Of a DNA stretch of 64,000 bases, positions 10,987 to 27,408 are shown one piece after another (the first letter of the stretch is position 1; each line of letters opens with the position of its first letter). The notes under the pieces are model-generated. The model had not been told where the DNA came from. It saw only the letters and a list, made by a program, of their open reading frames with translations, and ran no database searches. The stretch is taken from positions 1 to 64,000 of the forward strand of contig CALXLM010000003.1 in the NCBI GenBank assembly GCA_944389195.1. Reading direction: 5' to 3'. The position numbers and the translations under genes were made by a program. The stretch comes from an uncultured Opitutales bacterium. Its GTDB lineage: Bacteria; Verrucomicrobiota; Verrucomicrobiia; Opitutales; Intestinicryptomonadaceae.

Positions 10987-13137
10987 TTAGTGCGGGCCTA
11001 TGTCGCGGCTCAGTATATGCTTTACGAGCGGATCGTTCCCGAAATATTTTTTAACGTCCCGCAAAGTTAGGTGCTGATTATTGCGAACCGCTTTGGCATC
11101 TGAGGGGCTTATGTACGAGTTCCCGTAAAGGAGAAGAAGCCCGTTTAGAGCCATCGACGAATTGAATATCTTGTTGTGGAATGCGTAGTTTATTCTCGGC
11201 TCCGACGGATCGAGAATGCGCGAAAGCCGTGGGTAGGCTTTGTGGTAGGGGCCGTTTTCGATGTCTATGCTGGCCCTCCACTTTGCCTCGCCTTGCAGCT
11301 TTTTTGCGTATTTTTCGTCGGTCCATGTTTGCGAGCCGAAAGCCGACTTGCAGTTTATGAATATGTTTTTTTCGGCGCGTGTTTCGCAGCCGCCGTGGAT
11401 ATATACGGCCCCGAAGCTCGAAGCGCCCGCATTGTTGCCCGTGTTGCAGAATATATTGTGTGACACAAGGACTCCGGCATTGGATTCGTCAACGTACACC
11501 CCGGCCGAAGGCCCGAAATTTGAGCGGTTGTTTGTGAAGAAATTATACCGTATCACATTTCCGAGCTGCGCGAGGTTGGAATAGGTGTACACAACCCCGT
11601 AGTCGTTTGCGAATTCGCAGCAGCGCTCGAAGATGTTTTTTTCTATGATATGGTTGTTGCCGGTGAATACGAGAGTGGATTGGCGTTGGTTCGATATGCG
11701 GGAGTTCGCAAAACGCACGCCGACGCCGGATATGCTAAGCGCGTAGCTCCCGCAAAAGACCCGCAGGGAGTTTTTGTTAAAAGTGCAGTTGGATATGAGC
11801 ACGTTCGAACTTTCAAGCGTGCGCCTGTTGCCTCCGCCTATCGCCGCGCCACCGGTGGCGTTGTCGAAAAATTTGCAGTTTAATATCTTGTTGTTTTTTG
11901 ACATGCGGGACGAATAGTCGCTTTCGTCGCGCCTTTTGAGGCTGACGCCGTTGAGAACCATCGGCCTCCCGCAGGAGCGAAAGAAGCACTTGTTTATTTC
12001 TATGTTGCGGCAAAATTCGCCCCTTATCGGAGAGTTGCGCGTCACGGAAAATTCTATGTTTTGTATCTTTATGTTTTCGGATCCCGAAATGGATAATATG
12101 GGGTCTGGAAGCAGAGAAAAATAGAAACAGTCGCCGTCTTTGGGCTTCGATTCAAGGATGGTGTAAAATACTAAATTTTTGCGGTCGATAAAATACTCTC
12201 CCGGCATGTCGAGTTCCTCGATGAGGTTGAAAACCTGGTATCCCCTGACTTCAAGCCCCGCCCTGTCGGCGTAATCGCGAGAACCCTTCGGAGGCGTATT
12301 CGAGCGCACTCCGTATGCGTGAAAGTCCGACAGGGTTATAGTCTTTGCGGCCGTGTCTATTTTTTTTATTTTAATTTGGTCGTAGGCCCAGCCCACGGAA
12401 AAATTTCCGCGCAAAAACGCATCTTGGGCGTTCGCCCAGCGCGCCGGACGGTCAAAGTCGTATCCGAATGTCGCGCCGCGCCGATTCTCATTTTTCAATG
12501 GTACGTATGCGTCGCTTCCTACAAAATGCGTAATCGATCCCGGGTCGAAAACCTTTCCTATCTTTAAAAGCGAGTCGTTGTTCGGGTAGCGCGCCGGAAC
12601 CATCGGCTTTCTGTTCAGAAACGCTTCGCTTTCTATCGGACGCGAATTCCACGAGCCCCAGCCGAGCCTTATTACTTCACCGAGTTTCTTAACACCGAAT
12701 TTTTTTAGGTCTATTTTATACAGCGCCCCGCGGGCGTCGGCTGGGATTTTTGACAGCACGTTTTTGTCGGAAACCCTTTCGAGATTTATCGCTTCTATTT
12801 TTATGCCTCCGATAAGGCGCACCTTCGGCTCGCTGGAGAATTTCGGGCCGGTTATTGAAAGCGTTTTGCCTTTAGTGTGGCGGGGCAGTATGGATATGCC
12901 CTTGTCGAAATAATATTCCCCCTCTGCAATGCGTATTTCAAAATCGCCTGGTTCCGCCGCGCAAAAAACCTCAATCGCCTTGGAGAGAGATGCAAACGGT
13001 TTTTCTTCGGTTCCGGTCCCGACGGTGTCAGAACCATTAGGAGATACGAATACGGTTTGGGCGCAAAAGGCGTCGCACAAGGCGGTTGCGACGGCCGCGG
13101 CCAGTGTTATTTTTACGCACTTTTGCATATGCTGCAT
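10987..13137 (-). CDS. Secreted right-handed parallel beta-helix protein, probable polysaccharide-active enzyme
   Basis: 716 residues with a signal peptide (MQKCVKITLAAAVATALC, cleavage after FCA); translation may start at the first or the fourth codon (both Met). VSPNGSD...GTEEKPFASLSKAIEV is the usual opening of secreted DUF1565/pectate-lyase-like beta-helices. The C-terminal half carries many short N-x-I/F-x-N-C turns (VLISNCTFNKNS, HIIEKNIFERCC, VLVSHNIFCNTG, TRAEKNIFINCKSA), the PbH1 repeat pattern. The architecture resembles large beta-helix glycoside hydrolases such as GH141, but I cannot assign a family or name catalytic residues. Single gene with its own upstream region. Confidence 0.7.
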   Translation of the reverse strand: MQHMQKCVKITLAAAVATALCDAFCAQTVFVSPNGSDTVGTGTEEKPFASLSKAIEVFCAAEPGDFEIRIAEGEYYFDKGISILPRHTKGKTLSITGPKFSSEPKVRLIGGIKIEAINLERVSDKNVLSKIPADARGALYKIDLKKFGVKKLGEVIRLGWGSWNSRPIESEAFLNRKPMVPARYPNNDSLLKIGKVFDPGSITHFVGSDAYVPLKNENRRGATFGYDFDRPARWANAQDAFLRGNFSVGWAYDQIKIKKIDTAAKTITLSDFHAYGVRSNTPPKGSRDYADRAGLEVRGYQVFNLIEELDMPGEYFIDRKNLVFYTILESKPKDGDCFYFSLLPDPILSISGSENIKIQNIEFSVTRNSPIRGEFCRNIEINKCFFRSCGRPMVLNGVSLKRRDESDYSSRMSKNNKILNCKFFDNATGGAAIGGGNRRTLESSNVLISNCTFNKNSLRVFCGSYALSISGVGVRFANSRISNQRQSTLVFTGNNHIIEKNIFERCCEFANDYGVVYTYSNLAQLGNVIRYNFFTNNRSNFGPSAGVYVDESNAGVLVSHNIFCNTGNNAGASSFGAVYIHGGCETRAEKNIFINCKSAFGSQTWTDEKYAKKLQGEAKWRASIDIENGPYHKAYPRLSRILDPSEPRINYAFHNKIFNSSMALNGLLLLYGNSYISPSDAKAVRNNQHLTLRDVKKYFGNDPLVKHILSRDIGPH

Positions 13138-13446: not shown

Positions 13447-14310
13447 TTAGATTTTAGGAGGAAGGTTTTGAGAGAGTACGGACGGGCTCATTTCGTAAAC
13501 GCCGACCTTTGTCGCAGGGCCGCTCATGGTTATGGAGTAGTCGGGCGCAATCCTGATTGAAAGCAGGCCTCCCTGCATGTGTACGGTGATGTCGTTGTCG
13601 CACAACCCAAGCCTTCGAGCGACGGCCGCGGCCGCGCTCGACGAACTTCCAGAAGCGAGCGTGTATCCGGCGCCGCGCTCCCAAATTTCTATTTTAATAT
13701 TGTTGCGGTCAAGCACCTGGAGAAGTTGGACGTTCGTTCGGTTGGGGAACAGAGCCGTCATGTTTTCGATAACCGGGCCTATTTCCCTCGCGAGTTCAGG
13801 GGTGGCGTTTTCCATGGGAAGCACGCAGTGAGGGTTGCCGACGGTTGCGCAGCAGTATTTGTATGCTTTCCCGCCGATTTCAAATTCCCTGTTTATGACT
13901 TCGCCGCCTTCGCCCAATACGGGAATTTTTTTCGAGTCGAAACTCGCCCGCCCCATTTCTACCGTTATAGTGTTTCCGCCGTCGGATACGACGCACTTTA
14001 CGACGCCCCCGAGCGTATCGACAGTAAACGGAGCGCCGCTTTCCACGCGTTTTGTGTCGAAGAGGTAGCGCGAAAATATGCGCAGGCCGTTTCCGCTCTT
14101 TTCCGCCTCCGAAGCGTCGGGATTGAGAATTCTCAGCTTAAAGTCCGCCCTGTCTGACTTTTCGGGTCCGTACAAAATGCCGTCGGAACCGAGTCCGAAA
14201 TTGCGGTGGCATATTTTGACGACGTCGGAGCCTTCAGGCATCTTTTTGCAGTCGGCGGGGTCAAGCACGAGATAGTCGTTTCCAAGGGCGTGGTATTTCG
14301 AAAATTTCAT
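13447..14310 (-). CDS. dapF: Diaminopimelate epimerase-like protein lacking both catalytic cysteines
   Basis: 287 residues from the ATG at 14310, which begins the conserved MKFSKYHALGNDYLVLD; the frame continues 13 codons upstream without conservation. The fold is DapF throughout: GLGSDGI, NPDASEAE, VGNPHCV, NRTNVQ. In DapF the two acid/base cysteines sit in E-x-C-G-N-G and in G-E-T-x-A-C-G-T-G. Here these read EKSGNG (Ser72) and GYTLASGSSSS (Ser220), and the Glu of GET is Tyr. Cys-to-Ser DapF is expected to lose epimerase activity, so the true substrate or chemistry may differ. It is divergent from the biotin operon across 104 bases. Confidence 0.75.
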   Translation of the reverse strand: MKFSKYHALGNDYLVLDPADCKKMPEGSDVVKICHRNFGLGSDGILYGPEKSDRADFKLRILNPDASEAEKSGNGLRIFSRYLFDTKRVESGAPFTVDTLGGVVKCVVSDGGNTITVEMGRASFDSKKIPVLGEGGEVINREFEIGGKAYKYCCATVGNPHCVLPMENATPELAREIGPVIENMTALFPNRTNVQLLQVLDRNNIKIEIWERGAGYTLASGSSSSAAAAVARRLGLCDNDITVHMQGGLLSIRIAPDYSITMSGPATKVGVYEMSPSVLSQNLPPKI

Positions 14311-14414: not shown

Positions 14415-15362
14415 ATGGATATTTCCGCAAAAATAATAGGAGGGGGAAGGCTGTCGCGCGGCGACGCAGAATCGCTGCCTAAACGGTTTTCCGTCGAAGA
14501 TATATGCGCGGAGGCCGACAAGGTTCGCGCCCACTTCCTCGGCCGCTCGGTCGACACATGCTCGATCATGAACGCCCGTTCGGGCAAATGCACTGAAGAC
14601 TGCAAGTGGTGCGCGCAGTCGGCTAGATACCGTACGGGATGCGGCGTTTACGGATATGTATCCGCGGATTCGGCGCTCGAGAGGGCGGAGTATTACAGGG
14701 GAAAGGGCATACGCAGGTTTTCGCTCGTGACAAGCGGCCGCACGGTTTCCGATTCCGATATCCAAAAGTTGTGCGAAGCATTTTCGCTTATCCGCGACGC
14801 GGGCGGAATAGAGCTGTGCGGCTCTTTCGGGCTTCTCGGCAGGCATCAGTTTGAACGTCTCGCAGCCGCTGGCATGACGCGTTTCCATTGCAATCTCGAA
14901 ACCGCGCCGTCGTATTTTCCGAGCCTGTGCACGACGCATACAATCGGCGACAAAATAGTCGCCATTAAGGCGGCCCGCAGCGCCGGGTTAAGCATTTGCA
15001 GCGGCGGAATCATAGGAATGGGCGAGACATACGCCCAAAGGGTGGAGCTTGCCGACACCCTTGCCGGGCTCGGAGTCGATTCGATACCGTTAAACATTCT
15101 CCAACCGATAAAAGGCACGCCCCTTGAAAACACTCCTCCGCTTACGCGCGACGAAATACTTTTGGCTTTTGCGGTGTTCAGGCTTATGAATCCGAGGGCC
15201 CACATACGCTTTGCGGGGGGAAGATCGGCCATAAGGGACTTTCAGGAAACGGCTTTGCGTTCGGGGGCGAGCGCAATACTAATGGGCGACATGCTCACGA
15301 CGGTGGGTTCGTCGATAGACGAAGACTTTAAAATGCTTTCAAGGTTGGGATATGAATATTGA
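14415..15362 (+). CDS. bioB: Biotin synthase
   Basis: 315 residues, usual length. The radical-SAM cluster motif CTEDCKWC places Cys59, Cys63 and Cys66; NARSGKC, CGSFGLL, HCNLETAPSYF, and the GMGET segment follow the family order. It inserts sulfur into dethiobiotin, using a [4Fe-4S] and an auxiliary [2Fe-2S] cluster. First gene of the biotin operon and overlaps bioA by 11 bases. No Shine-Dalgarno is visible because a 9-base repeat arm abuts the ATG. Confidence 0.96.
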   Translation: MDISAKIIGGGRLSRGDAESLPKRFSVEDICAEADKVRAHFLGRSVDTCSIMNARSGKCTEDCKWCAQSARYRTGCGVYGYVSADSALERAEYYRGKGIRRFSLVTSGRTVSDSDIQKLCEAFSLIRDAGGIELCGSFGLLGRHQFERLAAAGMTRFHCNLETAPSYFPSLCTTHTIGDKIVAIKAARSAGLSICSGGIIGMGETYAQRVELADTLAGLGVDSIPLNILQPIKGTPLENTPPLTRDEILLAFAVFRLMNPRAHIRFAGGRSAIRDFQETALRSGASAILMGDMLTTVGSSIDEDFKMLSRLGYEY

Positions 15363-16626
15363 GGGCTTGGTTGATTTCGATATGCGCCATGTTTGGCACC
15401 CGTACGCGGGCATGAAAAATCCGCAGCGCCCGTATTTCGTGGAGTCGGCCGAGGGCGTTTGGCTTAAGCTTGCCGACGGCAGGAAGGTTATAGACGGCAT
15501 GTCTTCGTGGTGGGCGGTCGCATACGGCTACCGCAATCCAAAAATCGACGCCGCCGTTTCGGAACAGCTGAAAAAAATGAGCCATGTGATGTTCGGAGGA
15601 CTTACCCACGAAGGGGCGGTAAAGCTCGCGGAAAAACTCGTGGAAATGACTCCCCGAAACCTTCAAAAGGTGTTTTTTTGCGATTCCGGTTCTGTTTCCG
15701 TGGAAGTCGCAATGAAGATGGCACTGCAATATTGGCGCGCGCTCGGCGACCGCAACAAGACGAAATTCGCCACCGTCCGGGGCGGCTACCACGGCGACAC
15801 ATGGCACGCGATGTCGGTGTGCGACCCGGTAAACGGAATGCACTCGCTGTTTTCCGGCGGGTTGCCGATAAACTTTTTCGTCCCCCGCCCCGAGTCTAAA
15901 TTTGGGGGCGAGTGGAATCCCGACGACATATCCCCAATGCGCCGGCTTCTTAACGAAAGCTCGTCCGAGATTGCGGCGGTGATTCTCGAGCCTGTGGTGC
16001 AGGGCGCCGGAGGAATGCGCTTTTACCATCCGCAGTACTTGCGCGAGCTCAAAAAACTTTGCGAGGCTTGCGGCGTCCTTTTAATATTCGACGAAATTGC
16101 GACCGGATTTTGGCGTTCCGGGAAAATGTTCGCGTGCCATTGGGCGGAAACCGAACCCGACATCATGTGCGTGGGCAAGGCACTAACCGGCGGATACATG
16201 AGCTTTGCGGCGACCTTGGCCGATGAAAAAATAGCCGATGCCATTTCCGATTCCGAAGCGGGCGCTTTCATGCACGGCCCGACTTTTATGGGAAATCCAC
16301 TCGCGTGCGCCGCCGCTAACGCCGCATTGGATATCGCCCGAAACGGAAATATTTTGGAAAAGGTTTTAAAAATAGAAAGCGGGCTAAAGCGTGGTTTGGA
16401 ACCGTTGAAAAACAGCGCGGCTGTAGCCGACGTGCGCGTTCTGGGCGCAATCGGCGTTTTGGAGATGCGCGAACCGATAGATGTTCCTGCCGTTCAGGAG
16501 AGGCTTGTTGAAAACGGCGTATGGCTGAGGCCTTTCGGAAAATTGTTGTATACGATGCCTCCGTATGTAATATCCGAAAGCGAACTTCGGACAGTGACGG
16601 ATGCCGTGTCGAAAGTTGTCGGATAA
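15352..16626 (+). CDS. bioA: Adenosylmethionine-8-amino-7-oxononanoate aminotransferase
   Basis: 424 residues, class III aminotransferase. MRHVWHPYAGM, SSWWAVAYGY (substrate loop of BioA), GGYHGDTWHAMS, IFDEIATGFWRSG and the PLP lysine in VGKALTGG are all present. It forms 7,8-diaminopelargonic acid from the BioF product using SAM as amino donor. Start ATG 15352 overlaps the bioB end. Confidence 0.95.
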   Translation: MNIEGLVDFDMRHVWHPYAGMKNPQRPYFVESAEGVWLKLADGRKVIDGMSSWWAVAYGYRNPKIDAAVSEQLKKMSHVMFGGLTHEGAVKLAEKLVEMTPRNLQKVFFCDSGSVSVEVAMKMALQYWRALGDRNKTKFATVRGGYHGDTWHAMSVCDPVNGMHSLFSGGLPINFFVPRPESKFGGEWNPDDISPMRRLLNESSSEIAAVILEPVVQGAGGMRFYHPQYLRELKKLCEACGVLLIFDEIATGFWRSGKMFACHWAETEPDIMCVGKALTGGYMSFAATLADEKIADAISDSEAGAFMHGPTFMGNPLACAAANAALDIARNGNILEKVLKIESGLKRGLEPLKNSAAVADVRVLGAIGVLEMREPIDVPAVQERLVENGVWLRPFGKLLYTMPPYVISESELRTVTDAVSKVVG

Positions 16627-16630
16627 AAAA

Positions 16631-17812
16631 ATGGGCCGTTTTGCAGACAGATTGGAATCGCTCAGGAGGACGGGAACGTACCGCAGCGTTGAAAACGCCG
16701 TCGTTTGCGGGGCGAAGATATGTAAAAACGGCCGCAAATACGCGGACTTTTCCAGCAACGACTACCTCGGCCTGTCTTCCCGCGTCGATTTGCAGCGGGA
16801 ATTTTTTGCGGAGCAAGCGGGTTCCAACCGCTTTTTAATGGGATCGCTTTCGTCGCGCCTTCTCGGGTGCAATTCGTTCGCGCATGCTGATTTTGAAGAT
16901 TTCATGGGCGGGGTTTATTCCGGGGCATGCGGGGTTCGGAGAGCGTGCCTTCTTTTCAATTGCGGATACCACGCAAATTCCGGGATAATTCCTGCGCTGG
17001 CAGCTTCGGGCGACCTTGTCGTCGCCGACAGGCTTTCGCACGCGAGCCTCATCGATGCGCTCAGGCTTACGGACGCCAAATGGATGCGCTTCCCTCATAA
17101 CGATATCGACCGCCTCGACGAAATTTTGGAGAAGCGGAGGGGGGAATTTAAGGACATTTACATCGTCACGGAATCCGTGTTCAGCATGGACGGGGATTTT
17201 TGCGACATTGAAAGGCTTGTCGCCTTGAAAAAAAAATACGGGGCGTTTTTGTACATAGACGAGGCGCATTCGTTCGGCATTTTTGGCGAAAGGGGGCTTG
17301 GGCGTTGCGCCGATTCGGGGCTGCTGGGCGAGATTGACGCGGTAATGTGCACGCTCGGCAAAGCAGCCGCTTCGGAGGGGGCATTCGCGATTTGTTCTGA
17401 GGAGACGCGGGAAATGATTGTAAACAAATGCCGCACCTTTATATTTTCCACGGCCCTTTCGCCGATTGCGGCAATGTGGTCCAAATTTATATGCGGTAAA
17501 ATATTTTCCATGGGCGAACAAAGGCGCCACTTAATGGAAATCTCCGAAATTTTTAGGAGGGCGGTGCGCGGTGCGGCCGGCGGAGATTCCCAGATAGTTC
17601 CTGCGAGGGTCGCGGGGGGCGCGGCGGCGGCCGCTGCCGTTTCCGGCGCAATGGCGGAAGCGGGTTTTTTTGTCCCCGCCATACGCCACCCGACGGTTCC
17701 CAAAGGTACGGAGCGTTTGCGCTTTTCGTTTACGGCGGCTCATTCGGCGGAGGACGCGCTGGCGGCGGCTTCGGCTTTTAACGCCTTTGCCGGCGGAGGG
17801 AGGCTCGCATGA
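16631..17812 (+). CDS. bioF: 8-amino-7-oxononanoate synthase
   Basis: 393 residues from ATG 16631, four bases after the bioA stop; the frame runs ten codons upstream inside bioA. DFSSNDYLGLS, GSNRFLMGSLSSRLLGC, FNCGYHANSG, DRLSHASLIDAL, ESVFSMDGD and DEAHSFG define the alpha-oxoamine synthase family. The PLP lysine is in TLGKA; the usual glycine-rich continuation is AAASEGAFA here. It condenses pimeloyl thioester with alanine. Confidence 0.92.
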   Translation: MGRFADRLESLRRTGTYRSVENAVVCGAKICKNGRKYADFSSNDYLGLSSRVDLQREFFAEQAGSNRFLMGSLSSRLLGCNSFAHADFEDFMGGVYSGACGVRRACLLFNCGYHANSGIIPALAASGDLVVADRLSHASLIDALRLTDAKWMRFPHNDIDRLDEILEKRRGEFKDIYIVTESVFSMDGDFCDIERLVALKKKYGAFLYIDEAHSFGIFGERGLGRCADSGLLGEIDAVMCTLGKAAASEGAFAICSEETREMIVNKCRTFIFSTALSPIAAMWSKFICGKIFSMGEQRRHLMEISEIFRRAVRGAAGGDSQIVPARVAGGAAAAAAVSGAMAEAGFFVPAIRHPTVPKGTERLRFSFTAAHSAEDALAAASAFNAFAGGGRLA

Positions 17813-19215
17813 AATATAAGTGGATTAAACGCACCGGCTCTCGCACACTTATTGCGTTTTTCGGAGGCTTTGCATGTGACGGGAATATTTTGTCGCGTTC
17901 GGGCATTCCCGGCGATTGCGATACTGCGCTGTTTTTCGATTATCGCGGGCTGGATACGGATTTCGACTTCGGGGCGTATAAAAAAATCGCCGTTATCGCC
18001 TGGTCTTTCGGGGTGTGGGTGGCCGATTTCCTCGCGGAAAAGACAGGAAAGGCTTTCATGCGGATCGCCATAAACGGTTCGCCGTATCCGGTTGACGACT
18101 TGAGAGGCATTCCGGAACAGGCCTTTGAAAGGACTCTCGCTCGCTTCGACGCCTCAGTTAGAGACAAGTTTTTCAGGCGGGTTTGCGGCGGGGCTTCGGA
18201 ATTTTCGGAATCGGGGGGGCTGCTCGCGTCGAGGGATCCGGGTGAGCTTGCCGAAGAGCTCGCGTTTTTAAAGTCGGCTTTTAAGCTGCGCCCCGGTTCC
18301 CCGGAAGCTTGGGACGTTTTTATCGCGTCGCGCAGCGACAGGATTTTCCCTCTTGAAAATCTGAAGCGCGCGTGGGGCGACGGCTTGCGCGTCTGCGAGG
18401 GCGACCACTTGAACGTGCCGATTTTCGGAGTGGCGCTTTCTGCCGTGTCGCGGAGAATTTCAAAAATGCGCGGCGGCTTTGAAAAATCCGCGGGAGAGTC
18501 GTATTCGCGGCACGCGTTCGTACAGCGCGAGATAGCCTCTACCCTTGCCGACATAATCGAAGATTTTGCGCCGGAACCAGCGTCTGTAAAAAATATTTTG
18601 GAAATAGGTTGCGGAACCGGCTTTCTCACTTCGGAATTGGCTTCAAAATTCGGATCAGCGCAGTGGCACTTGAACGACATTAGCCCGAAAATGTGCGAAC
18701 TGGCTGCCAAAAACCTTCCGGAAGACGCGGCGCGCGTGTTCGCCGAAAACGCAATGTCGGCCGAATTCCCAAAAAACATGGACTTGATTTTGTCTTCGTC
18801 GTGCTTTCAGTGGTTGGACGACCTGCCGTCGCTTTTTAAAAAGCTGTCGGCAATTTCAAAAAGCGGGGCGATTTTGGCTTTTTCGACATTCGGTGACAGG
18901 AATTTTTTCCAAATAAGGAGCATAACGGGCTCTGGTTTAAAATATCCCCCGCTCGGCGCCGTAAAGTCGGCCTTGGCGGACGCCGGATATTCGGTTCTGT
19001 ACGCGGCGGAGGATATTATGGACGTGGAGTTCGGCTCCCCGCGCGCCGTGCTCGAGCACATGAAAAGCACGGGCGTCAACGGAGGCTTTTCGCGCTTTTG
19101 GACGCCGAAAAAATTGGCCGATTTTTCGGCGTCGTACGCATGCGGCTTTTCGTCGGGGGGCGGGGTCGTTTTAACCTACAATCCGATTTATATAATAGCA
19201 AAGAAGACAAGTTAA
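17809..19215 (+). CDS. BioG-BioC fusion: pimeloyl-ACP methyl ester esterase and malonyl-ACP O-methyltransferase
   Basis: 468 residues. Residues 1-210 are BioG (DUF452) with FFGGFACDG, nucleophile Ser66 in AWSFGVW, acid Asp177 in SDRIFP and His200 in GDHLNVP. Residues ~233-468 are a class I SAM methyltransferase of BioC type: YSRHAFVQREIA (BioC opening), EIGCGTGFLTSEL at 265-277, and SSSCFQWLDD. BioC methylates malonyl-ACP so it can be extended to pimeloyl; BioG removes the methyl group. Having both in one chain lets priming and release be co-expressed. Similar fusions are known in Bacteroidetes. Start overlaps bioF by 4 bases (ATGA). Confidence 0.9.
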   Translation: MKYKWIKRTGSRTLIAFFGGFACDGNILSRSGIPGDCDTALFFDYRGLDTDFDFGAYKKIAVIAWSFGVWVADFLAEKTGKAFMRIAINGSPYPVDDLRGIPEQAFERTLARFDASVRDKFFRRVCGGASEFSESGGLLASRDPGELAEELAFLKSAFKLRPGSPEAWDVFIASRSDRIFPLENLKRAWGDGLRVCEGDHLNVPIFGVALSAVSRRISKMRGGFEKSAGESYSRHAFVQREIASTLADIIEDFAPEPASVKNILEIGCGTGFLTSELASKFGSAQWHLNDISPKMCELAAKNLPEDAARVFAENAMSAEFPKNMDLILSSSCFQWLDDLPSLFKKLSAISKSGAILAFSTFGDRNFFQIRSITGSGLKYPPLGAVKSALADAGYSVLYAAEDIMDVEFGSPRAVLEHMKSTGVNGGFSRFWTPKKLADFSASYACGFSSGGGVVLTYNPIYIIAKKTS

Positions 19216-19216
19216 A

Positions 19217-19849
19217 ATGAGATTTTTCGTAAGTGGAACAGATACGGGAGTCGGCAAGACGGTCGCTACCGGGTGGCTCGCAAAAAGGTTTTCCGAACGC
19301 GGGCTGAGGGTAGTCACCCAGAAATTGGTGCAGACGGGCTGTTCGGGCGTGTCGGAAGACATAATCGAACATAGAAAAATCATGGGATGCGGCATGTTGC
19401 CTTGCGACTTAGATTTTACGACGTGCAGGTACGTCTTTAAATATCCGGCTTCGCCGCATTTGGCGGCCTCTATGGAGGGGGTTGACATGGATTTCAATCT
19501 GGTTTCAAAAGACACCGACGCACTCGAAAGCCGCTTTGACGCAGTTTTCGTGGAGGGGGCAGGCGGACTTGCCGTTCCTCTCAAGCCGGGCTATCTTACG
19601 GCCGACTATGTTTGCGGGCATTCACTTCCTCTGTGGCTTGTTGTGCCCTCCAAGCTCGGAAGCCTCAACCACGCCCTCCTTTCATTGGATTTTTGCGCCG
19701 CAAGAAAAATAAGGCTTGCAGGAATCGTTTACAATGCGTTTCCGAAGGCTCCCCGCCAAATAGAGGATTCCACTCGCGAATATCTTGCGGAAACTTTAAA
19801 AAAAGACTGGCCCGGCGCCGAATTGCTCGAGATGGGGGAGGTAAAATGA
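19217..19849 (+). CDS. bioD: Dethiobiotin synthetase
   Basis: 210 residues. P-loop GTDTGVGKT at residues 7-15, catalytic-lysine segment TQKLVQTG, VEGAGGLAVPL, and PSKLGSLNHALLS. It closes the ureido ring with CO2 and ATP. One base separates it from the previous stop, and it overlaps the next gene by 4 bases. With bioB/A/F/GC the pathway from malonyl-ACP to biotin is complete here. Confidence 0.94.
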   Translation: MRFFVSGTDTGVGKTVATGWLAKRFSERGLRVVTQKLVQTGCSGVSEDIIEHRKIMGCGMLPCDLDFTTCRYVFKYPASPHLAASMEGVDMDFNLVSKDTDALESRFDAVFVEGAGGLAVPLKPGYLTADYVCGHSLPLWLVVPSKLGSLNHALLSLDFCAARKIRLAGIVYNAFPKAPRQIEDSTREYLAETLKKDWPGAELLEMGEVK

Positions 19850-26193: not shown

Positions 26194-27408
26194 ATGTCGT
26201 TGATAGTACAGAAATACGGCGGAACGTCGGTGGGCGATACCGACAGAATTTTGAACGTGGCAAAGCGGATAAAAAAATTTGTCGACGGCGGCAACAGCGT
26301 TGTGGTCGTCGTTTCCGCCAGAAGCGGCGTTACAAACGAACTTATTGCACGGGCAAAAACGTTTTCTCCGGAGCCGGACGACCGTGAGATGGACATGCTG
26401 CTCGCCGTCGGCGAGCAGGAGACGATAGCGCTTACAGCAATGGCTTTGCATTCCCTCGGCGTTAAGGCGGTTTCGCGTACGGGCGCCCAGGCGGGGATTA
26501 TCACCGACGACGCCCATACGCGCGCGCGCATTGTGGAAATAACGGGCGGAGACATACGCGAATGCCTCGACAGGGGGGAGGTCGTCATAGTCGCCGGATT
26601 CCAGGGCGTGGACAAGGCGGGAAACGTCTCCACGCTCGGAAGGGGCGGGAGCGATTTGTCGGCCATTGCGCTCGCCGCCGTGCTGAAAGCCGATATCTGC
26701 CAAATCTACACCGACGTCAGCGGTGTGTACACAGCGGATCCACGCGTTGTCAAAAACGCGCGCAAAATACCGGAAATGTCTTACGAGGAGCTTTTGGAAA
26801 TGGCGTCTTTGGGCTCAAAAGTAATGCAGGCCAGAAGCGTAGAGTTTGCGCAGAAACACAACGTCGTATTCGAAGTGCGATCAAGTTTTAACAACGAACC
26901 CGGAACAATAGTGAAATCGGAAGCACCATCATTGGAGGACGTCGTAATCAGCGGCGTGGCCATAGACAGAAACCAGACGAAAGTCACCGTAAGCGACATT
27001 CCCGACAAGCCCGGAACTGCGGCCGACATTTTCCGCGAGCTCGGCGAGGCCGGCATAGTTGTGGATATGATAGTTCAAAACGTCGGAAGGGGCGGAAGGG
27101 CAAACCTCACGTTTACGGTTTCGAAAGACGACGCAACAAAAGCCGAAAAAGTTTTGCGCGCCCATTGCGAAACCATAAAGGGGGCTACGGTTTCCATCAC
27201 GGGCGATATCGCCAAGGTTTCCGTAATAGGAACAGGAATGCGCTCGCACAGCGGCGTGGCAGCCAAGTTTTTCCAGACGCTTGCGGAAAACAGCATAAAC
27301 GTCCAGATAATCACCACGAGCGAAATAAAAATATCGGTCGGCATATCGCTTGAGGACGCCGACATGGCGGCAAACGCGCTCCATGCGGCGTTCGCCCTCG
27401 ATAAGTAA
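26194..27408 (+). CDS. lysC: Aspartate kinase
   Basis: 404 residues. VQKYGGTSVGD at the N-terminus, VVSARSGVTNELI, GRGGSDLSA, YTDVSGVYTADPR; two ACT domains follow from about residue 265 (TKVTVSDIPDKPGTAADIF and AKVSVIGTGMRSHSGVAA), giving feedback regulation by lysine and/or threonine. First step of the aspartate family. No homoserine dehydrogenase fused. Preceded by a 216-base control region with a promoter and inverted repeat, and followed by thrC after about 100 bases. Confidence 0.95.
   Translation: MSLIVQKYGGTSVGDTDRILNVAKRIKKFVDGGNSVVVVVSARSGVTNELIARAKTFSPEPDDREMDMLLAVGEQETIALTAMALHSLGVKAVSRTGAQAGIITDDAHTRARIVEITGGDIRECLDRGEVVIVAGFQGVDKAGNVSTLGRGGSDLSAIALAAVLKADICQIYTDVSGVYTADPRVVKNARKIPEMSYEELLEMASLGSKVMQARSVEFAQKHNVVFEVRSSFNNEPGTIVKSEAPSLEDVVISGVAIDRNQTKVTVSDIPDKPGTAADIFRELGEAGIVVDMIVQNVGRGGRANLTFTVSKDDATKAEKVLRAHCETIKGATVSITGDIAKVSVIGTGMRSHSGVAAKFFQTLAENSINVQIITTSEIKISVGISLEDADMAANALHAAFALDK

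What the first reader, a model, noticed from the sequence alone, without database searches (positions are those of the whole stretch)
13447..14310. DapF-like protein with both catalytic cysteines changed to serine
Seen: EKSGNG instead of E-x-C-G-N-G (Ser72), ASGSSSSA instead of ACGTGACA (Ser220), and Tyr for Glu in the G-E-T segment. Known: the Cys pair is the acid/base couple of DAP epimerase; Cys-to-Ser variants lose epimerisation. Inference: altered substrate or chemistry, or a non-catalytic member. The protein is otherwise full length and not decayed.
Basis: partly seen in the sequence, partly recalled or inferred. Interest (0 to 1): 0.58.

Follow-up and report, generated by a model that had tools for sequence, protein, structure and literature searches.

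The report
Diaminopimelate epimerase with two catalytic serines
A wall-building enzyme that normally works with a pair of cysteines has a pair of serines instead in a whole branch of bacteria, and gene neighbourhoods suggest that it still does its usual job, which would mean a chemistry not expected for this enzyme.

Summary
The minus-strand ORF 13447-14310 (287 aa) is a DapF-type protein with Ser72 and Ser220 where DAP epimerases have their catalytic Cys pair, and Tyr216 in the G-x-T segment. It is not a local oddity: of 100 distinct relatives whose motifs I read, 78 are Ser/Ser, 21 Cys/Cys and 1 Ser/Cys. The Ser/Ser class spans Verrucomicrobiota, Planctomycetota, Thermodesulfobacteriota, KSB1, Fibrobacterota and Bacillota. 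All listed DAP-contact residues are invariant in it. It is the only DapF-family protein of this genome, which also has DapL, a MurE scoring as a DAP ligase and a LysA-like protein, and no Ddh. In a KSB1 genome the Ser-type gene lies between dapA and dapL in a lysC-dapB-dapA-dapF-dapL-lysA run; in two near relatives it directly follows dapL. Genomes without a DapF match mostly carry Ddh, the bypass enzyme (11 of 12 against 2 of 48 with DapF). Best reading: a working LL-DAP/meso-DAP epimerase whose two-base couple is Ser/Ser, perhaps helped by Tyr216. Activity is not shown. A decayed or re-purposed protein is unlikely. New variant of a known kind; I found no description in the papers searched.

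The parts
13447..14310 (-). Ser/Ser DapF-type gene, 287 aa, stop codon included
   Evidence: TIGR00652 220.8 bits over cut-off 114.65; PF01678 169.3 bits
14095..14097 (-). codon of Ser72 (AGC), place of the first catalytic Cys
   Evidence: Ser in 78 of 78 class members
13651..13653 (-). codon of Ser220 (TCT), place of the second catalytic Cys
   Evidence: Ser in 78 of 78 class members
13663..13665 (-). codon of Tyr216, found only with the Ser pair
   Evidence: Tyr in 78 of 78 Ser/Ser, 0 of 21 Cys/Cys genes
14098..14100 (-). codon of Lys71, next to Ser72
   Evidence: Lys in 76 of 78 Ser/Ser genes, Met in 20 of 21 Cys/Cys genes
26194..27408 (+). aspartate kinase (lysC), first step of the same pathway; context only, not adjacent
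   Evidence: NF005155 559 bits over cut-off 346

Best explanation
The gene encodes the cell's LL-DAP to meso-DAP epimerase, of a conserved class in which both acid/base cysteines are serines. Inferred mechanism: the two domains close on LL-DAP; the carboxylate sits between the N-termini of the two active-site helices; Ser72 and Ser220, at those N-termini, face the alpha-carbon from opposite sides; one hydroxyl, polarised by the helix end and by class-specific neighbours (Tyr216, Ser222-Ser225, perhaps Lys71), takes the alpha proton while the other gives one back. Tyr216 may itself share the role of base on the Ser220 side. Shown: the residues, their conservation, the genome context, the fold (as a model). 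Inferred: the activity, the Ser/Ser couple, the role of Tyr216.
For: Only PF01678 protein of its genome; one such gene in each of the 47 of 54 order relatives that have any. Own genome holds DapL (NF004937, 644.2 over 585), a MurE scoring as DAP ligase (NF001126, 519.2 over 373) and a LysA-like protein (TIGR01048, 270.1, under 297.9); no Ddh over cut-off, no DapD over cut-off. KSB1 locus L039: lysC, dapB, dapA, Ser-dapF, dapL (TIGR03542 559 over 364.7), lysA-like in one run. DapL (641.5 over 585) ends just before Ser-dapF in G017 (L012), and a like-starting ORF does so in G018 (L016). DapF and Ddh replace each other: 11 of 12 genomes without a DapF match have Ddh, 2 of 48 with one do (Fisher 2.6e-9); within the order alone 3 of 4 against 2 of 48, p 0.0018; an earlier set of genomes at least 90% complete: 3 of 4 against 3 of 42, p 0.005. 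Reduced genomes G030, G042, G043 have no LysA match but keep MurE and a Ser/Ser DapF. N11, N63, N74, N159, H161, N193, E211, R212 invariant in 78 of 78. dN/dS 0.09-0.12 in three pairs. Model pLDDT 93.3, both serines just before the helices 73-85 and 221-233; best match Anabaena DAP epimerase, TM 0.87, Z 36.0.
Against: No activity is shown. Single Cys-to-Ser changes in the related histidine racemase greatly reduce turnover (PMC11602996), and serine is a far weaker acid than cysteine (recalled). Opitutaceae contain DAP by GC/MS but TLC saw no DL-DAP; the authors blame low amounts (PMC5303756), and no stereochemistry was given in the passages read. G345 (97% complete) has neither a DapF match nor Ddh. 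Some genomes carry a Ser-type gene besides a Cys-type one (G057, G058, G408), so it is not always the only epimerase. In the window itself dapF is not among DAP genes. Related genomes share history, so the Ddh tests overstate independence.
Confidence: 0.8

Rival explanations
1. A catalytically dead DapF kept for another role, such as a binding partner of another enzyme (E. coli DapF binds RppH).
For: Both catalytic cysteines are gone; DapF-RppH complexes are in the PDB (titles).
Against: Sole DapF-family protein in most carriers; sits among DAP genes in some relatives; lost mainly where Ddh is present; DAP contacts invariant. A dead protein would not need them.
Confidence: 0.08
2. An epimerase or racemase of another or an additional substrate, for example glutamate, since glutamate racemase MurI is missing in this order.
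For: MurI over cut-off in only 1 of 54 genomes; C. trachomatis DapF makes D-glutamate (PMC5885031).
Against: G004, G009 and G015 lack DapF and also MurI, so D-glutamate there comes from elsewhere. Score to the bifunctional DapF/glutamate racemase model is 53.3, cut-off 350. DAP contacts are kept.
Confidence: 0.07
3. The organisms use LL-DAP directly in their wall and the protein does something else to DAP, such as an elimination.
For: No DL-DAP seen by TLC in Lacunisphaera (PMC5303756); a Ser/Thr relative in the superfamily is a dehydratase (PMC4113996).
Against: LysA-like protein present in the genome and 43 of 54 genomes have a LysA match, though only 3 over cut-off; LysA needs meso-DAP (recalled). 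Ddh, which makes meso-DAP (recalled), takes the place of DapF.
Confidence: 0.04
4. Assembly error or strain-specific decay.
For: Only the unusual residues themselves.
Against: 78 distinct Ser/Ser genes, both codon boxes used at both sites; dN/dS about 0.1.
Confidence: 0.01

Closest known systems
Two-cysteine DAP epimerase DapF (Anabaena, Arabidopsis, H. influenzae, E. coli)
   Same: Full-length homology (30-35% identity for these four), same fold, same DAP contacts, over the DapF equivalog cut-off
   Different: Both catalytic Cys are Ser; Tyr216, Lys71, Ser222-Ser224 replace the usual residues
4-hydroxyproline 2-epimerase of Agrobacterium vitis with a Ser93/Cys236 pair (proline racemase superfamily)
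   Same: Related fold; a serine acts as one of the two catalytic residues, at the first site (passages of PMC4113996)
   Different: Second residue is still Cys; other substrate; the A. vitis hydroxyproline epimerase 4lb0 aligns to the model at 13% identity
[quoted passage not shown]
   Same: No cysteine in the pair (passages of PMC4113996)
   Different: Dehydratase, with Ser90 the catalytic residue; 16% identity (4k7g)
C73S and C217S mutants of H. influenzae DapF (2q9h, 2q9j)
   Same: Serine at one or other catalytic site, structures solved (titles)
   Different: Engineered single mutants, without the co-varying residues of the natural class
Bifunctional DapF/glutamate racemase of Chlamydia
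   Same: DapF family; from a superphylum relative that lacks MurI (PMC5885031)
   Different: Keeps both Cys (C72, C207); window protein scores 53.3 bits against a cut-off of 350

Membership tests
DapF (DAP epimerase, TIGR00652) | Score over the curated equivalog cut-off | tested here: met
   220.8 bits, cut-off 114.65
DapF (DAP epimerase, TIGR00652) | Pair of catalytic cysteines | tested here: not met
   Ser72 and Ser220; Ser in 78 of 78 class members
DapF (DAP epimerase, TIGR00652) | DAP-contact residues (Asn, His, Glu-Arg set) | tested here: met
   N11, N63, N74, N159, H161, N193, E211, R212 invariant in 78 of 78; contacts taken from passages of PMC12039745 and PMC5885031
DapF (DAP epimerase, TIGR00652) | DapF fold with the pair at helix N-termini | tested here: met
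   By a predicted model:
DapF (DAP epimerase, TIGR00652) | Place in the DAP/lysine pathway | tested here: met
   By relatives, not by the window's own neighbours:
DapF (DAP epimerase, TIGR00652) | LL-DAP to meso-DAP epimerase activity | not testable with these tools
   needs the protein
Ser/Cys 4-hydroxyproline epimerase | Ser at first site, Cys at second | tested here: not met
   Second residue is Ser220; one distant relative, L109 of G051, does have Ser/Cys
Bifunctional DapF/glutamate racemase (NF038284) | Score over the curated cut-off | tested here: not met
   53.3 bits, cut-off 350
Histidine racemase (HisR, CntK) | Close structural and sequence match | tested here: inconclusive
   Same fold, 14-18% identity, Z 23-25 against 36 for Anabaena DapF

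The most novel reading that the evidence does not exclude
A widespread natural epimerase that removes an amino-acid alpha proton with no cofactor and no thiol, using a serine pair (with Tyr216 as helper or partner). It would show that the low thiol pKa is not required for this chemistry, and that DapF in this class cannot be hit by inhibitors that attack the catalytic cysteines.
Probability: 0.65. Interest if true: 0.75.

Novelty: new variant of a known kind. Interest (0 to 1): 0.62.

Why it matters
How cofactor-independent racemases take a proton of pKa about 29 with a thiolate of pKa about 8.5 is called unusual in the literature (abstract of PMC12039745). A natural class that does the same step with serines would test what the thiol is for, and offers matched Ser/Ser, Ser/Cys and Cys/Cys enzymes. 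It also touches the question of whether and how subdivision 4 Verrucomicrobia make meso-DAP for peptidoglycan, and it is a warning that name-by-model annotation passes a protein whose catalytic residues differ.

Tried and rejected
Second dapF in the genome: none. Ddh: none over cut-off in the own genome, best 21.9 bits. DapD: none over cut-off, best 34.4 bits with an inner stop. The plant-type DapL model (TIGR03542) did not reach its cut-off on the own DapL, which is of another class. MurI as an explanation: see rivals. Operon evidence in the window itself: none; the neighbours are a biotin operon on the other strand and a beta-helix protein. Other loci with little context help: L041, L043, L044, L053. 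L045 has an Mpl/MurC-like ORF just before Ser-dapF, but under both cut-offs.

Counting limits. The 100 genes were gathered by likeness to the window protein, so the 78:21:1 split is no frequency. Dropped: genes whose two motifs were not both in one open frame (for example L056, L058, L108, L113, L114); 6 of the 84 Ser/Ser rows were double readings and were merged. L182 and L217 were missed by the script and read (L182 Ser/Ser; L217 second motif only, Ser). In the 387-genome survey 350 matched; by my count of the list 82 at 47% identity or more, of which both motifs were read in 37, all Ser/Ser; 14 read at 38% or less were all Cys/Cys. Identity is not a clean proxy: fast-evolving members of the order at 37-45% are Ser/Ser. 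For the Ddh test I gave 12 of the 37 genomes without a match (absence judged by the search with the window protein only) and 48 of the 350 with one. Counting all 54 genomes of the first set, incomplete ones too, the Ddh link is weak (3 of 7 against 5 of 47, p 0.058). G010 gave no match in any of the searches made over that set and is not informative; leaving it out gives p 0.0014.

Tree: the careful search did not finish; only the quick tree is used, and L109 has a very long branch. Active-site geometry: I had no coordinates of the model, so the distance of Tyr216 to Ser220 is unknown.

Papers searched without finding a Ser/Ser DapF: (also 31, 48, 56 for other points). Open-access text only; a description elsewhere is possible. 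Seen: passages of PMC5885031, PMC11602996, PMC12039745, PMC8142540, PMC5303756, PMC4113996; the rest as listings.

Full report
What is there. The ORF lies on the minus strand, 13447-14310, 287 codons from an ATG. It matches PF01678 (169.3 bits) and the NCBI DapF equivalog model (220.8 bits, cut-off 114.65). Aligned with the Anabaena and Arabidopsis enzymes, Ser72 and Ser220 stand exactly where their catalytic cysteines are.

It is a class, not an accident. Among 100 distinct genes whose two motifs I could read, 78 are Ser/Ser, 21 Cys/Cys, 1 Ser/Cys (gathered by likeness, so not a frequency). Ser/Ser genes come from Opitutales and other Verrucomicrobiota, Phycisphaerae, Desulfobacteraceae, KSB1, Chitinispirillia, Christensenella and another Bacillota bin; several of these records are metagenome bins. 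Both serine codon boxes are used at both sites, so the serines have been held through codon changes. In a quick tree the Ser/Ser genes are one side of a single branch (SH-aLRT 96; careful search not finished). dN/dS against three relatives is 0.09-0.12; two further pairs were saturated at silent sites.

What changed with the serines. Tyr216 is present in 78 of 78 Ser/Ser and none of 21 Cys/Cys genes; Lys71 in 76 of 78 (Met in 20 of 21 Cys/Cys); Ser223 in 77 of 78 (Gly in 21 of 21). What did not change: N11, N63, N74, N159, H161, N193, E211 and R212 are invariant in the class; the matching residues contact DAP or its analogues, or are called essential, in the papers read (passages of PMC12039745; PMC5885031). 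In the Anabaena enzyme the amide of Gly227 lies within hydrogen-bond distance of the second catalytic sulfur; the class has Ser223 there. So the substrate pocket is that of a DAP epimerase and the differences gather at the catalytic couple.

The genome needs an epimerase. This is the only DapF-family protein of the genome. The genome has DapL, which makes LL-DAP; a MurE scoring as a DAP ligase; and a LysA-like protein a little under its cut-off. It has no DapD and no Ddh over cut-off. One DapF gene, and no more over the cut-off, is found in all 47 of 54 order relatives that have any (three of them, G025, G041, G049, are Cys/Cys, and G051 is Ser/Cys). In 13 of 17 genomes from the named collection that carry the class or a remnant of it, it is the only family member.

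Neighbours. In the KSB1 locus L039 the order is DapE/ArgE-like, lysC, dapB, dapA, Ser-dapF, dapL, lysA-like. In G017 a DapL gene ends directly before Ser-dapF, and in G018 an ORF with a like start does. In the window itself the neighbours, a biotin operon on the other strand and a beta-helix protein, say nothing.

A natural test. Ddh makes meso-DAP without an epimerase (recalled). If Ser-DapF is the epimerase, it should be lost mainly where Ddh is present. First set: of 46 genomes at least 90% complete, Ddh is over cut-off in 3 of 4 without DapF and in 3 of 42 with it (p 0.005). The prediction was then tried on 60 genomes, chiefly new: 11 of 12 without a DapF match have Ddh, against 2 of 48 with one (p 2.6e-9). 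Eight of the 12 lie outside the order, where the DapF genes read are mostly of the Cys type, so they test DapF in general; inside the order it is 3 of 4 against 2 of 48 (p 0.0018). Three of the 60 had been in the first set, and three of the 48 (G285, G351, G372) have only a distant, probably Cys-type, match. Relatedness makes the p values too small.

Other hints. Reduced genomes G030, G042 and G043 show no LysA match, yet keep MurE and a Ser/Ser DapF, as expected if its product goes to the wall. In Sporomusa acidovorans, which has an intact Cys-type DapF, the Ser-type gene is broken, and G070, also with a Cys-type gene, holds only a fragment: redundancy, then decay. G051 carries Ser at the first and Cys at the second site, a possible step between the classes, but on a long branch.

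Structure. The AlphaFold2 model is confident (pLDDT 93.3, pTM 0.88) and puts both serines just before helices 73-85 and 221-233. The best solved matches are DAP epimerases and O-ureidoserine racemase (TM 0.87; Z 36).

Mechanism, with what is shown and what is not. Shown: sequence, conservation, context, modelled fold. Inferred: LL-DAP binds as in DapF; Ser72 and Ser220 face the alpha carbon from two sides; one takes, the other gives the proton; Tyr216 and the serine cluster polarise or share the base. Precedent: a hydroxyproline epimerase of the same superfamily works with Ser93 and Cys236 (PMC4113996). Against: Cys-to-Ser mutants of HisR are greatly reduced (PMC11602996). I did not find a natural Ser/Ser epimerase described.

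Verdict. Works like DapF, very probably in the same place in the pathway; by the letter of the family it fails the two-cysteine criterion, so I call it a Ser/Ser class related to DapF by sequence, fold and context rather than an ordinary DapF. The open question is biochemical and directly testable.

Noticed in passing
window 14415-19849 +: Biotin operon divergent from dapF: bioB, bioA, bioF-like, a BioG-methyltransferase (BioC-like) fusion of 468 aa, and a bioD-like gene (Pfam). In L043 (Desulfobacteraceae) bioA also lies two genes downstream of a Ser-type dapF.
   Followed up: partly
54 genomes of the order: Glutamate racemase MurI is over cut-off in only 1 of 54 genomes; how D-glutamate is made is open.
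   Followed up: partly
G051, L109: Natural Ser/Cys DapF (EMSGNG ... GRTKSCGSG) in a 1.0 Mb genome of the same order.
   Followed up: partly
G345 (same order): Genome 97% complete with neither a DapF match nor Ddh; an exception to the replacement rule.
   Followed up: no
G408: L218 and L219: Ser/Ser and Cys/Cys DapF genes on one contig of the same genome.
   Followed up: no
Sporomusa acidovorans L056/L168: Broken Ser-type dapF beside an intact Cys-type one elsewhere in the genome.
   Followed up: partly
window 10987-13137 -: 716-aa protein with a right-handed beta-helix region next to dapF.
   Followed up: no
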